From positions 1 through 64,000 of IMG/VR virus record IMGVR_UViG_3300046501_000132: a stretch of 64,000 bases of DNA. One strand, given 5' to 3'. Position 1 is the first letter of the stretch. Every line of letters begins with the position of its first letter. The notes beneath the pieces were generated by a model. It ran no database searches. It was not told the DNA's origin and saw only the letters and a list, made by a program, of their open reading frames with translations. Made by a program: the position numbers and the translations under genes. This document shows positions 15,857 to 54,388 of the stretch, piece by piece. The DNA is from a virus.

Positions 15857-18193
15857 TTACTGCCTATCCCCTGTCAGTAACCAAGCATTAGTAGCTATCT
15901 TAATGATTGATACCGGGGAATACTGAACCCTAGTATTTGTAGTGCCTGCTGAATATAGGGTGACTCCTGATCCAGCTGATACTGTAACCTGCCCAGCTCC
16001 CATTTGTACGATGTTAATACAAGCACCGACTTGAAATGCAGCGCTCGCATTCGGAGGAATGGTTACATTGATAGCTGAAGCATTGTCCATTAGTAACCAA
16101 CCTTTATAAGTCGGTTTAGGTGCGTGAGACAAAGCTAATGTGACTGCTGTGGAAGTCGATGTCGTTACAGCATCTAATATTGGTATACTCTCTCCACTAA
16201 TCGTCTTTTGCCACTTGGCCGTATCTACATACGGCGGCGTCGTGGAAAGGTATGGAGTAGTTCCCAACAAATTGAAGATAGCAGTTGAGGATTCAGGGAA
16301 TGCTAGAACAGATGCATCAACTACGTTATTATCAACGATGTATTGATATCCGTTGAGCAAAGCGTGTAGTCCATCATCCGTCCAACCTGGAGCCTTCCAC
16401 TTACCGGAGTCTCTTGCGGATTCAAGAGCATCGGCAATTTCAAAGTACCCTGCCCATCCCGCAGGCATTGCTCTAACCGCTGCGTTATACAATAGTCTTT
16501 GAGCATTTGACGAATGTGACGTTTGATTATTCGTTGTTGCCCAAGAGTCTGTTGAAGTAGTCACTGGAGGTAGAGTTGTGCCATACCATTCCTTGCCTGG
16601 GAAGAATCCTCGGCAAGTATTCATATCATTAATAGCGGCTGATGCTGTGTTGCCGTTACGAATGTCATTAGTTCCCAAACCACAAATGACGTGAGTCAAA
16701 TATGGTAGTAGTGAACCAAAACCAGAGCCATCTTGAACAAGATTCTCTGCAGTCTTGCCGTAATTACCAGACACTGAGAATGCAATATTTTGTTCAAACA
16801 GGCTAGGCGTAATGATACCGTTTTCGGTGGTTCCCGGAATACCGCCATAGTTATTGAAACCGGCAGTCATAGAGCCGCCGACTGCAAACACCGAAGGTTT
16901 ATTGGTTTGACCAATAATGGCGCAAGGTCCATAAATATGCTCATTGAACATATTAGGAATTGTTCCGCCCATAGTTCTATTGGTCAATGTGATGCCGTAT
17001 TCAAGAGCTTCACCCATACCCGCGTCTCCGCCGTTGGTGATACGGGCATACATCAGTCCATTTGGGTGGCGTAGGAAACTACGAACCCAGAAGCCTACAC
17101 CGTCTGGAATTGCAACAGAAACACTATCAGAAGTGAGAGTTAATCCATTAGGAATCGTACCATCCGCTGAACCTCCGAATAAAACTTGAGTGAACACTCC
17201 AGCCGGATATTCAATAGACGCACTAATGGTACAATCTGCTCCTGTCGCCTCATTAAAACTGATAAAGTTGGGGAACATCAACTTCAGGCTAGAGATAGAC
17301 TCAGTGGCCTTGTGATATGTGCGACTATTAGATTGTCTATTTGACGTATAGAAGTAGAATGGGAAGATGCCGTGGGTGGCTACCAATCCTTCATAGTCCC
17401 CACCAGAAGCTGCTGTGTTTGCAAACACATACGATCCAGATGGGTATATTGTCCCCGCTGTCCAATCTCCGGCAATCCCATTTGGGCCAGTGGCTCCTGC
17501 TAGTCCAGTAGGGCCAGTTGGCCCTTGGTCTCCAACAATTCCTTTATCTCCAACTGGTCCTTTATCTCCGGTGGGGCCGGTTAGCCCTTGAATTCCTTGG
17601 TCTCCAGTTATACCCTTATCTCCAACTGGTCCTTTATCTCCAGTTGCTCCAGTTGGACCTGTTGCTCCGGTGATACCTTGAATACCTTGGTCTCCTGTCG
17701 GACCCTTATCGCCGGTGGGCCCTTTATCCCCAACAATACCTTTATCTCCGGTTGTTCCTGTTGGACCTTGATTGCCGACCGGACCTTGTCCTCCAACTGG
17801 TCCTACATCGCCAGTGGCGCCTTTATCCCCAGTCGGTCCTGTTGGACCTTGAATACCTTGGTCACCTACTGGTCCTTTATCCCCAGTCGGTCCTGTTGGA
17901 CCTTGAGGGCCAGGTTCGCCAATATTACCGGCATCGCCTTTAGGGCCGGTTGCTCCTGTTGGGCCCGTATCTCCCTTGGGGCCTTGTGGTCCCTGAATAC
18001 CTTGGATGCCTGGTACTCCTGGGTCGCCTTTCGGCCCTTGTACGCCATTGCTCAAATCAGGTAGATCCGAAAGATCAAGATAACTACCTGACTTAGCAAC
18101 TTCATGCAGGCTGTTATGTTTCTGATTAAGAGTCTTGACGTCAGCCGCAATTAATGCTGATAGTTGCTTCAACTGCTGGATGATATCTGCCAT
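15857..18193 (-). CDS. Collagen-like tail fibre with SGNH esterase domain
   Basis: This 778-residue protein has three parts. Residues 1-50 are an N-terminal helix, probably for attachment. About residues 52-240 are collagen-type Gly-X-Y triplets ([13 protein letters not shown] and similar), expected to form a rigid triple helix. The C-terminal half holds an SGNH hydrolase core: GGSMTAG (block I Ser), [10 protein letters not shown] (block III) and [12 protein letters not shown] (block V Asp/His). A small beta-rich C-terminus follows. Inferred: a receptor-binding fibre that deacetylates host surface polysaccharide. It is on the strand opposite the main virion module, grouped with holin candidates. 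Confidence 0.85.
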
Positions 18194-47243: not shown

Positions 47244-48698
47244 CTAGGTACGGGCGCGGTTGCGAACTTCGTCAAACGTTGGGATATATTCCCGTTCGCC
47301 ATCACAGTAGTACATCTTCCATCCATCCGTATCGCGGAAGACGCTGAACCCGTTGCCCGCCACAGTTTCAATCTGACCGTTCACCAATGCAGTATGGGCC
47401 AGGCCGGACAGCGACTTCTTACTGGAGTCAGTCTTGGGTTCCTTCAGGAGATTTACCCAACCCAGTTCCTCATCGTAGCGGGCAGTTGCCTTCATCGAGA
47501 ATGAGAACTCATCGCGGCCAGGACCATGAGTCATACCACCGCCCATACCAAAGGTCAGGTTATCCATCGAGTAATCAGCAGCCAGCAGATTGTCGATGAT
47601 CTGGGGAATACTGATGTGGTTGATACCATCGCCTTGGATAACCCGGAACGAGGGATGCAGAACCTTATACCCTGCGTCGTTCTTGGTCGAACCAACCTTC
47701 TCATCGATCAGACGGATGATTTCAATCGGCTTGGTAAGCGGGTTGCCGGAATCCGGGCGAGCAACCATCACGCCGCCAGAGGCAATAATACGGTCCCTCA
47801 GCTTACCACACAGATATTCACCGACGAAACGCTCATCGTCATAGGTGTCAATCACCACAGACTGGAGAGGAATACCGATACCTCGCTTGGTACGCGCCAC
47901 AGCTTCTTCCAGACGTTCAACCGACATTACAGCAGCGCCCCAGTCATCCTTATTGGCCGCATCTGAGTGTGAGCACATCACACTATGTTCCGTAGCATCA
48001 ACCGAACTAAACACCGGCTTGAACGTCCGGTAGATAGCCTTGATATAGGCGTTGGCTTGCAGGCAGTCAGAACCGGAGAACAGGAATCCGTGGGCGATTG
48101 CCGCAATGATTGCCGAATCGTTACCATCCGCGCCGCGATCACCGAAGTTGTGCAGCTTATACTCCAGCATGCTCATATCGGCCCCAGATTCTTGCATTGC
48201 CGCTTGAATCTTCTTGTAGCAGTAGCGGCTCATCGTGGCTACTGTGGTCATCTTCCACATGATACGCTGCACGACGGTTTCCACGTAGGACACAAGCCAG
48301 AAGAAACGTTCATCCGAGTTTACGATACCCAGGATCGGAGTATTGGGTTTCACCACCGTGCCTTCTTCCACGCCGAACACCTCCAGCGGTAGACGGCCAT
48401 CATACTCATTGGTGATGATTTCCCAGTCAGCTCGGTTGAACTCATAACCATATTGGTTGACTTCAACTTCAGCTTCATCGATCATTTCCTGAGTGATACG
48501 CACGTTTGCCAGAACAGCGGCAACCAGGGAAGCGCCAGCAGACACGATGCGATCGGTATACGACGAAGCCTTGCGCGGCACCACAGTTGAATAGATGAGC
48601 TTCGTGCCCTCGGGATATTCTGCGAAGTGGTGCAATTTATAGCTATCACAAGCGAGGATAAAGTTGCCCGGAACCAGATCATTAACGGATACAGTCAT
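47244..48698 (-). CDS. nadV: Nicotinamide phosphoribosyltransferase, ending in TAG
   Basis: This 484-residue enzyme makes nicotinamide mononucleotide from nicotinamide and PRPP. Seen: the NAMPT core with HNFGDRG near 170, SVMCSHSDAANKDDWG, the signature MVARPDSGNPL near 320 and VIQGDGINHISIPQI followed by FGMGGG. The length matches NAMPT family members. It is the last gene of the NAD operon. Its stop is TAG at 47244-47246; readthrough would add 13 residues. Known: phage NAMPT plus NMN adenylyltransferase can rebuild NAD+ after NAD-depleting defences. Confidence 0.94.
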   Translation of the reverse strand: MTVSVNDLVPGNFILACDSYKLHHFAEYPEGTKLIYSTVVPRKASSYTDRIVSAGASLVAAVLANVRITQEMIDEAEVEVNQYGYEFNRADWEIITNEYDGRLPLEVFGVEEGTVVKPNTPILGIVNSDERFFWLVSYVETVVQRIMWKMTTVATMSRYCYKKIQAAMQESGADMSMLEYKLHNFGDRGADGNDSAIIAAIAHGFLFSGSDCLQANAYIKAIYRTFKPVFSSVDATEHSVMCSHSDAANKDDWGAAVMSVERLEEAVARTKRGIGIPLQSVVIDTYDDERFVGEYLCGKLRDRIIASGGVMVARPDSGNPLTKPIEIIRLIDEKVGSTKNDAGYKVLHPSFRVIQGDGINHISIPQIIDNLLAADYSMDNLTFGMGGGMTHGPGRDEFSFSMKATARYDEELGWVNLLKEPKTDSSKKSLSGLAHTALVNGQIETVAGNGFSVFRDTDGWKMYYCDGEREYIPTFDEVRNRART

Positions 48699-48723
48699 TT
48701 GTTTCTCTTTTCTCTTTGGTAGA

Positions 48724-49779
48724 TTACTTCAACATTTCCTTGACCATAAAAACGTGGTCATCGTAACTTTCGGTCTGGATATCATCCAGGGCATTGATCT
48801 TGACCCAACGGTGACCAACCGCATCATCAGCCGGGTAGACCTCCGGACGCTCATCGAACATCGCGGTAACATCATACAACACTGCAAGAGTCGCACGCGG
48901 AATACCCAACGAACGGCTAGGGTCATCAAACAGCTTCTCTTTGACTTTACACTTCGCCAGCACGTCAGGCGGAATGTTCAGTCGGGCTTCTTCGTACAAC
49001 TCGCGCTCGGCGGCTTGAGCAAATGTCTCGTTTCGATTCTTGAACCCACCTGCCAGCGCCAGACAACCCTTACCAGGAGCCGCGCCGCGAACGATGAACA
49101 GAATCTCATCTTGCCAACGGACAATTGCGTCACCGCAATTGAAGGTCAGGGTTTCCGGGAAAGGATAGTCCTTGAACCGTTCAGTTTCCCGTTGGTAGAA
49201 GTGCCATTCCTTCTGGAGATTACTATCAATCAACTGTCGATCCATGAAGTCGGCAGTTTCCCGACTGATGAAACCTTGTTCGATGAACCGCAGAAGGAAA
49301 ACATCCGTCTGAAGACCTTCAAACCAAGCTTCCCGCAACCGAGTCGCGCAGAAGTCGGATTCATCGACTTCGGTCAGCGATTGCTTCCACTCCGGGAACA
49401 ACTTGTAGTAGAATGTAGATGCGTCCTTGTCGCAACCATACACCGTCACATCACTCGGATGATCAACATACGGGTGCACCAGTTGCTTCGCACGATCAGC
49501 CCAAGCATCGTTGTCATATGGCTCATCAATCAGCGGGCGATACACGATTCGGACATCACTCAAAATCCGACCATCGACATACGCGGATTGGACATTCGCT
49601 TCGATCATATCCACCGTTTCGTAATACGTGAACGGATTCTTGATTGAAACGCGACGATTGCTCGAACCGATCAGGATCATCACCCGGTCATTCTCACTCG
49701 CGGCCCGGATGATATGATCCATGTGGAACTTGTGAAACCCACGGAACCGTCCGATCACAACACCAACTTTACTTCCCAT
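48724..49779 (-). CDS. nadM: NMN adenylyltransferase-Nudix bifunctional protein
   Basis: This 351-residue enzyme should convert NMN and ATP to NAD+. Seen: the N-terminal nucleotidyltransferase with GRFRGFHKFHMDHI (HxGH-type site) and NPFTYYETVDMIEANV. A C-terminal Nudix domain has the box GGFKNRNETF through RELYEEARL near 230-250, and an Ala sits where Gly is usual after EE. Bifunctional proteins of this form are known in some bacteria and phages. The gene lies between the Cys protein and NAMPT in one operon. Confidence 0.93.
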   Translation of the reverse strand: MGSKVGVVIGRFRGFHKFHMDHIIRAASENDRVMILIGSSNRRVSIKNPFTYYETVDMIEANVQSAYVDGRILSDVRIVYRPLIDEPYDNDAWADRAKQLVHPYVDHPSDVTVYGCDKDASTFYYKLFPEWKQSLTEVDESDFCATRLREAWFEGLQTDVFLLRFIEQGFISRETADFMDRQLIDSNLQKEWHFYQRETERFKDYPFPETLTFNCGDAIVRWQDEILFIVRGAAPGKGCLALAGGFKNRNETFAQAAERELYEEARLNIPPDVLAKCKVKEKLFDDPSRSLGIPRATLAVLYDVTAMFDERPEVYPADDAVGHRWVKINALDDIQTESYDDHVFMVKEMLK

Positions 49780-51347: not shown

Positions 51348-51740
51348 TTACAACGGGAATTTCTTCCCAGCGCTAATCAACGCTTTCTTCTTGATCTTGA
51401 AGCTCGTACTTTCTTGTCCACCAAACATCTTACAGTTGGCGATTATCTCAGCCCAAGCAGTAAAATATAAGGATGGAGCTAGAGGATGTTTCCAAAGATT
51501 AACAATATCATCACCCTTCAGTGTATGGAACTCCATATCCTTTAAGATGAGTATTGCCGTCTCAAGATCGTCCGGCCAGATCGTAAAGTATTGAGCACAA
51601 GAATACTTAGCGTGATCAGGAAAACGTTGCTTACCATCTTCTCCCACGACTCTAGCTAGATGCTTACCGCAATCGTGGTAAATATGATACTGCTTCAAAT
51701 CCTTAATGTAATGTTTAGTCCGTTCATATATCTCTCCGAT
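51348..51740 (-). CDS. Hypothetical protein in frame after an amber codon
   Basis: The frame starts immediately after the TAG that ends the gene at 51741-51905, and has no ATG, GTG or TTG for its first 14 codons. The first possible start is a TTG at 51698 with AAGGA almost touching it. The first codons already look like protein (GEIYERTKHYIKDLKQYHIY). From 51740 it encodes 130 residues ending SAGKKFPL. It is either the C-terminal part of a readthrough product made with the amber-reading tRNA at 52280, or uses a poor start. No family recognised. Confidence 0.6.
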   Translation of the reverse strand: MGEIYERTKHYIKDLKQYHIYHDCGKHLARVVGEDGKQRFPDHAKYSCAQYFTIWPDDLETAILILKDMEFHTLKGDDIVNLWKHPLAPSLYFTAWAEIIANCKMFGGQESTSFKIKKKALISAGKKFPL

Positions 51741-51905
51741 CTACGGAGGAAGATCAATGATTTGCTCACCACCCTCAAGCTGATTAATCAACTCTTGGTA
51801 CGCCTCGTGAACCGCGTTTCCGTGATCCAACATATTCATCGTTTCGAACTGGTAGCAATTACTCATCGCTTCTTTCAGTTCGTATAGAGATTTAGCTAGC
51901 TGCAT
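51741..51905 (-). CDS. Hypothetical protein, 54 residues, ending in TAG
   Basis: Starts at the ATG at 51905, overlapping the PTH2-like gene by 14 nt. The product begins MQLAKSLYELKEAMSNCYQF and ends GGEQIIDLPP; it is helical. The stop is TAG (51741-51743) and the next frame continues in register for 130 residues, giving a possible 185-residue readthrough product. Function unknown. Confidence 0.62.
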   Translation of the reverse strand: MQLAKSLYELKEAMSNCYQFETMNMLDHGNAVHEAYQELINQLEGGEQIIDLPP

Positions 51906-52209
51906 TTGGACCCTTCCAGAGTTTATACTTACTGAACGTCTTACGTTGCTCAGCCGTGATCGGTTCAGTTGCGAAAGAAGTGAATCCATAATCCCAATCA
52001 GGCTCATAGAAGGCTTCACATCGAATCCCACGATCAATAGTACGTTTCATTGCTACCTCCAACTTTTCCTTATTAGGAATTTGGAGCATAATCAACGAGG
52101 AAGGTTCATTTGACTTTCTATCAAATGAATGACCGGCTTCTAGCGCGGCGTGACAAGCCTGAACGATCTGCTGTTCAATCGGCAAGTCGGTACGGATGAA
52201 AACATACAC
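51892..52209 (-). CDS. Peptidyl-tRNA hydrolase 2-like protein
   Basis: This 105-residue protein begins MYVFIRTDLPIEQQIVQACH and continues AALEAG, the hallmark of the PTH2 family (RxDL, then AQCxHAA). The middle (LIMLQIPNKEKLEVAMKRTI) matches the second strand-helix. The protein is slightly shorter than PTH2 (about 115-120). Known: PTH2 recycles peptidyl-tRNA. Inferred: it prevents tRNA loss during intense late translation. It lies within the tRNA array, next to the amber-reading tRNA. Confidence 0.78.
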   Translation of the reverse strand: MYVFIRTDLPIEQQIVQACHAALEAGHSFDRKSNEPSSLIMLQIPNKEKLEVAMKRTIDRGIRCEAFYEPDWDYGFTSFATEPITAEQRKTFSKYKLWKGPNAAS

Positions 52210-52279
52210 CCAAGTCTTTTCAGCGTTCTACGATTTCATTTCTATCTCACTTTGTTTAACTACATTAAAACCAAATATA

Positions 52280-52355
52280 TGGTGGCTCGTACCGGGATCG
52301 AACCGGTGACCAGCGGATTTAGAATCCACCGCTCTACCAACTGAGCTAACGAGCC
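52280..52355 (-). tRNA. Amber-reading tRNA (anticodon CTA)
   Basis: Standard numbering gives GGCTCGT, D-arm GCTC/GAGC, anticodon arm GTGGA-TTCTAAA-TCCGC, variable TGGTC, T-arm ACCGG/CCGGT, acceptor ACGAGCC, A73 and CCA. Positions 34-36 are CTA, the complement of UAG. All stems pair. The body closely resembles tRNA-Lys of Escherichia coli, so Lys charging is possible but not certain. Confidence 0.9.
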
Positions 52356-52365
52356 ATTATATATT

Positions 52366-52451
52366 TGGTACCTCGGGTGGGATTCGAACCCACACTCCCT
52401 TTCGGGAAGGGGATTTTGAATCCCCCGCGTCTACCGTTCCGCCACCAAGGC
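52366..52451 (-). tRNA. tRNA-Leu (CAA)
   Basis: Class II; loop TTCAAAA gives CAA, reading UUG. Acceptor GCCTTGG pairs with CCGAGGT, and the variable arm is CCC GAAA GGG. CCA encoded. Confidence 0.9.
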
Positions 52452-52532: not shown

Positions 52533-52540
52533 ATAAAACT

Positions 52541-52622
52541 TTGATCCTCTTTGTGGGCATCGAACCCACGTCTCCAGCGCATCAACGCCCCGGTATGCTA
52601 TCCATCTACACCATCAGAGGAT
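52541..52622 (-). tRNA. tRNA-like gene, isotype unresolved
   Basis: Acceptor ATCCTCT pairs with AGAGGAT and the T-arm GTGGG TTCGATG CCCAC is good. The anticodon arm is CCGG...CTGG with a long interior containing GCG-TTGATG-CGC, so it has a 10-nt class loop or a 6-nt inner loop. GAT (Ile) could be read but is not secure. No CCA is encoded. Confidence 0.5.
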
Positions 52623-52629
52623 TAAAACT

Positions 52630-52712: not shown

Positions 52713-52785
52713 TGGATGCGGGCGCAGGTAACGATCCTGCTTCCATCAAGGCTTATGAGACCTGAGTCCACCACTGGAACCCGCA
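52713..52785 (-). tRNA. tRNA-Met (CAT) with altered T-loop
   Basis: Loop CTCATAA gives CAT. Acceptor TGCGGGT pairs with GCCCGCA; the T-arm is GCAGG ATCGTTA CCTGC with A54/T58. T73 precedes CCA. Elongator, initiator or Ile2 use cannot be told by eye. Confidence 0.82.
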
Positions 52786-52793
52786 TTTGAAAC

Positions 52794-54313: not shown

Positions 54314-54388
54314 TGGAGTGGGTAACTGGATTCTAACCAGTGTAGCAAGGTTTTGCAGACCTGCACCTAAACACTCGGACACACCCAC
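54314..54388 (-). tRNA. tRNA-Cys (GCA)
   Basis: Loop CTGCAAA gives GCA. Acceptor GTGGGTG pairs with TACCCAC; T73 and CCA, as expected for Cys. Confidence 0.9.

What the first reader, a model, noticed from the sequence alone, without database searches (positions are those of the whole stretch)
52280..52355. Complete amber-suppressor-type tRNA, anticodon CUA
Seen: all four arms pair, A73 and CCA are present, and positions 34-36 are CTA by standard numbering. It should read UAG. The body resembles tRNA-Lys. Few phages carry such a tRNA, and those that do often use it to time late protein production or to read a reassigned stop.
Basis: partly seen in the sequence, partly recalled or inferred. Interest (0 to 1): 0.8.

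Follow-up and report, generated by a model that had tools for sequence, protein, structure and literature searches.

The report
Amber tRNA unlocking two phage genes
This virus of bacteria carries a tRNA that reads the 'stop' signal UAG, and the two genes right beside it each contain a UAG; the same pairing recurs in about a hundred large phage genomes, which suggests a stop-codon lock on two tRNA-handling genes that opens only when the phage's own tRNA key is present.

Summary
The tRNA is real: 52280-52355 (-), anticodon CUA, canonical fold, Lys-like body. Instead, 40 nt downstream on the same strand begin two overlapping genes with in-frame UAGs: a PTH2-fold gene (UAG at codon 4, 52228-52230) and an HD-hydrolase gene (UAG at codon 55, 51741-51743). 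Relatives make this more than coincidence. In 109 non-identical loci, 95 have a UAG-gated copy, mostly at codon 3 or 4. A CUA tRNA was found for 75 of these, the local ones all co-oriented. The three UGA-gated records carry UCA tRNAs and no detected CUA tRNA (at least two independent switches). The base after the gate is A 86, G 21, C 6, U 0, which favours suppression. Other genes in the same loci show such gates in about 2%; the only clear recurrent other family is again PTH2. Best reading: a dedicated suppressor tRNA is the key to a start-proximal stop codon on a tRNA-3'-end cassette. Read-through and its regulatory purpose are inferred, not measured. No description was found in the literature searched; the XacN1 paper says its suppressors' targets were not found.

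The parts
52280..52355 (-). amber suppressor tRNA, anticodon CUA (52320-52322), Lys-like body, A73 and CCA encoded
51892..52239 (-). PTH2-fold (peptidyl-tRNA-hydrolase-like) gene read from ATG 52239: MKS-UAG-NAEKTWVYVFIRTDLP...; TAA stop at 51892-51894
   Evidence: Pfam PTH2 E 4e-4, just under the curated cut-off; AF2 pLDDT 92, best fold matches are PTH2 structures 2zv3, 1q7s, 3erj, 1xty; conserved in many phages
52228..52230 (-). gate: in-frame UAG at codon 4 of the PTH2-fold gene, followed by A
51348..51905 (-). HD-domain hydrolase-like gene, start overlaps the end of the PTH2-fold gene (14 bases); TAA stop at 51348-51350
   Evidence: PHROG 14850 E 3e-59; invariant H28, H77-D78, H98, D123, H127; AF2 pLDDT 96
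51741..51743 (-). internal in-frame UAG, codon 55 of the HD gene, followed by A

Best explanation
The tRNA is a dedicated key. The phage keeps the standard code, but its PTH2-fold gene and HD-hydrolase gene each carry an in-frame UAG (in most relatives at codon 3 or 4 of each separately started polypeptide). Host RF1 ends translation there, after a few residues in the case of the early gates; the phage's own CUA-tRNA lets some ribosomes through, so full-length protein appears only once that tRNA has been made, processed and charged. Shown at sequence level: conservation of the stop, its gene specificity, its position, the matched anticodon, a suppression-friendly next base. Inferred: actual read-through; insertion of Lys here (possibly Gln). 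More speculative: the purpose. I think the lock ties the dose of a tRNA-3'-end cassette (peptidyl-tRNA release plus a CCA-enzyme-like HD hydrolase) to the presence of functional phage tRNAs.
For: (1) Both genes read cleanly through UAG and give confident models. (2) 95 of 109 non-identical relatives are UAG-gated; 113 gates scored: stop at codon 3 in 58 and codon 4 in 30. (3) Matched decoding: CUA tRNA found for 75 of 95; the 75 local CUA tRNA calls counted are all co-oriented with the cassette. (4) Covariation: L041, L113 and L115 have UGA instead and carry UCA tRNAs, with no CUA detected; at least two switches on the tree, L041's sister L040 being UAG/CUA. (5) Base after the stop: A 86, G 21, C 6, U 0. 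(6) Specificity: 95 of 4461 other ORFs (2.1%) against 71 of 87 PTH2-fold genes; the only clear recurrent other gated family was another PTH2. (7) In this record the PTH2-fold gene is the only UAG gate with a Shine-Dalgarno-like site and a coding-like ORF behind it. (8) Eight tRNA-rich phages without the cassette, 150 tRNAs: no CUA. (9) Sup tRNA bodies are very diverse but most keep the loop YUCUAAA. (10) Where the two domains are fused (XacN1, RAS14, pT24) one gate at codon 3 serves both.
Against: Nothing was measured: no expression, charging or peptide data. The window's Shine-Dalgarno (GUGAG) is weak and a GTG at 52209 downstream of the UAG could start the gene. In 20 of 95 UAG-gated loci no CUA tRNA was confirmed; several are short contigs and five records hold candidate tRNA-like matches not called by ARAGORN. 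Seven CUA-bearing loci lack a detected gate (L062, L063, L065, L075, L099, L202, L203). The internal UAG in HD lies at different places in the window and in CBB-like phages and is absent in ME3 and Arash. Gates are not phylogenetically independent, so the next-base p-value is too small.
Confidence: 0.88

Rival explanations
1. The early UAGs lie upstream of the true starts; the genes begin at downstream GTG/TTG/ATG codons and the stops are incidental, or the HD UAG is a pseudogene or assembly error.
For: A GTG at 52209 gives an open 105-aa PTH2-fold ORF; RaK2's annotated gene starts downstream of a UAG.
Against: Many gated relatives show no ATG between the stop and the conserved core; 76 of 113 gates have a Shine-Dalgarno-like site before the upstream ATG; next-base bias; UGA/UCA covariation; the same internal HD UAG in CBB, GAP32, XbC2, Kaldavass, BF and SNUABM_49.
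Confidence: 0.06
2. The suppressor serves genome-wide recoding or late-gene timing, as in code-15 phages.
For: CUA tRNAs accompany UAG reassignment in other phages (PMC13037316; PMC9523058, listed).
Against: UAG still ends four genes here, with at most 13-residue extensions; no other coding-like UAG joins; no release-factor gene.
Confidence: 0.03
3. The gate works but has no regulatory value: once a suppressor tRNA was present, a UAG drifted in and now locks the tRNA in place (neutral ratchet or addiction).
For: The circuit looks self-contained: the only detected targets are the two cassette genes; the inserted amino acid appears unconstrained.
Against: Stops cluster at codons 3-4, occur in both genes separately, persist through gene fusion and domain-order changes, and were re-matched after the change to UGA; drift would scatter them along the genes.
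Confidence: 0.25
4. AUG-x-UAG acts as a minigene: termination or drop-off at the short ORF makes peptidyl-tRNA, and the PTH2-fold protein is part of a feedback loop sensing that.
For: Gate at codon 3 of a peptidyl-tRNA-hydrolase-like gene; drop-off of short peptidyl-tRNA in early elongation is established (PMC10192219).
Against: HD genes carry the same gate; the next base favours suppression rather than release; the catalytic Lys of PTH2 (from memory) seems absent from the window's type.
Confidence: 0.1

Closest known systems
Stop-codon reassignment with suppressor tRNAs in phages (code 15, crAss-like, Lak, jumbo phages)
   Same: A phage-encoded CUA tRNA reads in-frame UAG in a host using the standard code.
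   Different: There many genes are recoded; here UAG remains a stop in this record and only one two-gene cassette is detected as recoded, mostly at codons 3-4 in relatives.
Suppressor tRNAs of XacN1 (PMC5852040) and annotated Sup/Pyl tRNAs of CBB, GAP32, BF, ME3, pT24
   Same: Same pairing: CUA tRNA plus gated PTH2/HD genes.
   Different: The XacN1 authors tested 18 amber stops and found no target; the HD-PTH2 fusion ORF364 with MK-UAG-TIKAM upstream fits.
PTH2 peptidyl-tRNA hydrolase of jumbo phages (PMC7824862)
   Same: Fold and several conserved residues; proposed there for ribosome rescue after tRNA cleavage.
   Different: The passages read do not mention a stop gate; ungated PTH2 paralogues exist beside gated ones (L054, L066; XacN1 ORF295 as named).
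Bacterial tRNA nucleotidyltransferase (3wfo/3wfp/3wfr, 'tRNA processing enzyme')
   Same: Closest solved fold to the HD protein; that these entries are tRNA nucleotidyltransferases is from memory.
   Different: Weak match (E 0.03, TM 0.58 of query); stand-alone or PTH2-fused in phages.
Selenocysteine and pyrrolysine decoding
   Same: A dedicated tRNA reads a stop in few genes.
   Different: No special synthetase found; tRNA bodies are ordinary and varied; the gated residue is N-terminal or near a helix start, not known to be catalytic.

Membership tests
amber suppressor tRNA | canonical tRNA with CUA at 34-36 | tested here: met
amber suppressor tRNA | anticodon loop with A37-A38 (efficient suppressors, established knowledge) | tested here: met
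   loop UU-CUA-AA
amber suppressor tRNA | aminoacylated and inserts a residue at UAG | not testable with these tools
   needs bench work
tRNA-Pyl | pylS present in the same genome | tested here: not met
   no tRNA-synt_2d match in the record
UAG-reassigned genetic code | UAG as sense in many genes and not as terminator | tested here: not met
   four UAG terminators, one cassette recoded
PTH2 | PTH2 fold | tested here: met
   Foldseek top hits are PTH2 structures, TM about 0.7
PTH2 | Pfam PF01981 curated cut-off | tested here: inconclusive
   21.1 bits against 23 for the window protein; 20 of 28 relatives match at E up to 0.1
PTH2 | catalytic Lys of the GKxxAQ motif (from memory) | tested here: inconclusive
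   position reads E/Q in the window type (alignments); present in the L117-type gated PTH2
HD phosphohydrolase | H...HD...D metal-binding residues | tested here: met
   invariant H28, H77, D78, D123 in 28 sequences
HD phosphohydrolase | Pfam HD match | tested here: inconclusive
   6 of 28 members, best E 0.007

The most novel reading that the evidence does not exclude
A widespread class of gene control in large phages: a stop codon placed within the first few codons of a specific gene as a lock, paired with a dedicated suppressor tRNA whose anticodon coevolves with that stop, so that the state of the phage's tRNA pool, or of RF1, sets expression of a tRNA-rescue module.
Probability: 0.6. Interest if true: 0.95.

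Novelty: new variant of a known kind. Interest (0 to 1): 0.9.

Why it matters
It offers a target for the orphan amber suppressor tRNAs of many large phages, a question the XacN1 paper left open, and makes it testable with a simple reporter. It would show stop-codon suppression used as a gene-specific lock rather than as a changed code, with the stop and the anticodon coevolving. It also exposes genes that annotation splits or truncates, and links a peptidyl-tRNA-hydrolase-like protein and an HD hydrolase in a tRNA-handling module worth studying in phage-host conflict over tRNAs.

Tried and rejected
Whole-genome reassignment and release-factor replacement. Pyrrolysine. Other UAG-gated genes in this record and recurrent gated families near the cassette: the only clear one was PTH2 again; a two-member cluster of ORFs on the minus strand of L122 and L148 was not pursued. 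Defence-system library: no match. PDB sequence search of the PTH2-fold protein: nothing meaningful. NAMPT as a control query gave only 14 loci, but its closest relatives L199-L201, tRNA-rich, lack both cassette and CUA tRNA in the stretches held.

Full report
Observation. The feature is a canonical tRNA, 52280-52355 on the minus strand, anticodon CUA (52320-52322), A73 and CCA encoded. Rfam gives 69.2 bits, second best in the array. Several of the best full-length phage DNA matches are annotated tRNA-Lys, up to 82% identical. The window is part of a 170,684-base virus record with T4-like structural genes (my reading of the ORFs) and about 25 tRNAs.

What it is not. Over the whole record my gene calls end in TAA 117, TGA 78, TAG 5. 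One of the five is the internal UAG of the HD gene described below; the other four would be extended by only 3-13 residues. There is no release-factor gene and no pylS-type synthetase. So the genome is not UAG-reassigned and I see no set of late genes with UAG.

What lies beside it. Forty bases downstream, same strand, ATG AAA TCG TAG AAC... opens a 115-codon frame (51895-52239) whose product beyond the UAG is PTH2-like; its end overlaps the start of a second frame (51351-51905) with UAG at codon 55, whose product is HD-like. The second frame was found because it is the only place in the record where two coding-like halves are joined by TAG. Read through, the two proteins give confident models: pLDDT 92 and 96. 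The first matches solved PTH2 structures; the second is nearest, weakly, to a bacterial tRNA-processing enzyme that I take to be a tRNA nucleotidyltransferase. Both candidate folds act at the 3' end of tRNA.

Relatives. Neighbouring homologues of both genes exist in phages CBB, GAP32, XbC2, Kaldavass, SNUABM_49, BF, ME3, Arash, and more distantly pT24, RAS14, XacN1 and LR745206; LR756511 has the PTH2-fold gene. In these the first gene starts M-x-UAG or M-x-x-UAG (MAQ, MAH, MTH, MT, ML, MK, MNN), including the fused forms. Several records annotate a Sup or Pyl(CTA) tRNA nearby. CBB-like phages also carry an internal UAG in HD, at a different site from the window's. RaK2 has no clear gate and no CUA tRNA was found in its record by pattern search.

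Scale. Two scans of IMG/VR gave, with the named phages, 109 non-identical loci. Of these 95 are UAG-gated and 75 of the 95 have a confirmed CUA tRNA, found locally by ARAGORN or elsewhere in the record by pattern search plus ARAGORN, one (L035) by Rfam and reading. The classification was made by script plus hand reading of the table. The 75 local CUA calls counted are all on the cassette's strand; 32 lie within 1 kb. Three bacterial-bin contigs (Obscuribacterales, Cyanobacteria) show the HD gate MT-UAG or ML-UAG with a CUA tRNA within about 250 bases downstream.

Covariation. Three records have UGA in place of UAG: L041 (PTH2-fold, MES-UGA), L113 and L115 (HD). All three carry UCA tRNAs; no CUA tRNA was detected in them, although for L041 and L115 only the fetched stretch was scanned for CUA. 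On an HD tree these are two separate changes; L041's sister L040 is UAG with CUA.

Selection for read-through. Among 113 gates the stop is codon 3 in 58 and codon 4 in 30. The next base is A 86, G 21, C 6, U 0. A purine after UAG is the context known to favour suppression (established knowledge). The p-value ignores shared ancestry. The suppressor bodies differ widely, while the loop is mostly YUCUAAA; the early-gate residue falls in a flexible N-terminus (window model), so its identity probably matters little.

Controls. In the same loci 95 of 4461 other ORFs (2.1%) look UAG-gated, at rates like UAA and UGA, against 71 of 87 PTH2-fold and 45 of 83 HD genes; clustering of the other gated ORFs with a ribosome site gave a five-member family that is itself PTH2, plus one unexplained pair. 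Eight tRNA-rich phages without the cassette hold 150 tRNAs and no CUA; one has UCA (falkor), one UUA (L201). L054 and L066 hold a second, ungated PTH2.

Mechanism. Shown by sequence: locked reading frames, matched tRNA, conserved position and context. Inferred: RF1 ends most translation at the gate; charged tRNA-CUA lets a fraction continue; protein level follows the ratio of tRNA to RF1. Speculative: the cassette recycles or trims tRNA 3' ends, as proposed for jumbo-phage PTH2 in tRNA rescue (PMC7824862), and the lock delays it until phage tRNAs are working, or reports on them. A neutral ratchet cannot be excluded.

Exceptions. Twenty gated loci lack a confirmed CUA tRNA; in the records of L102, L109, L114, L124 and L148 CUA-loop matches exist that ARAGORN did not call, four of them with odd D-arms or linkers. 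Some CUA carriers (L062, L063, L065, L075, L099, L202, L203) show no gate in what I could search.

Literature. Searches of the held library found no description. The XacN1 paper states that no target of its suppressors was found. The library lacks most subscription journals, so novelty is provisional.

Noticed in passing
L181, L169, L185, L167, L165 (near position 1500): tRNA-like sequences with a CUA loop, four of them with an unusual D-arm or a long acceptor-D linker, in records with gated genes; ARAGORN does not call them and Rfam scores those tested below its cut-off.
   Followed up: partly
window 54317-54388 (-): tRNA found by Rfam (44 bits) but not by ARAGORN.
   Followed up: no
window 52540-52625 and 52715-52790: Two further tRNA-like stretches with a T-loop-like motif between called tRNAs; not called by ARAGORN or Rfam, perhaps degenerate or noncanonical tRNAs.
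   Followed up: no
window 52270-52279 and 52360-52369: Inverted repeat ACCAAATATA/TATATTTGGT flanking the CUA tRNA gene; could extend its acceptor stem in a precursor.
   Followed up: no
L225 (Salmonella phage falkor) 23380-23453; L201 1130-1202: UCA and UUA tRNAs in phages without the cassette; targets unknown.
   Followed up: no
L152 7324-7649: tmRNA (permuted or beta type) match in a phage contig with a gated cassette.
   Followed up: no
L217 (Pseudomonas serbica, 1.06-Mb 'plasmid'): PTH2 and HD genes side by side on a bacterial replicon; no early stop seen in the part read.
   Followed up: partly
window 47244-49779: NAD-salvage pair: nicotinamide phosphoribosyltransferase-like gene and an adenylyltransferase/Nudix-like gene beside the tRNA array.
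   Followed up: no
window 15857-18193 (-): Long collagen-like Gly-X-Y repeat protein, probably a tail fibre.
   Followed up: no
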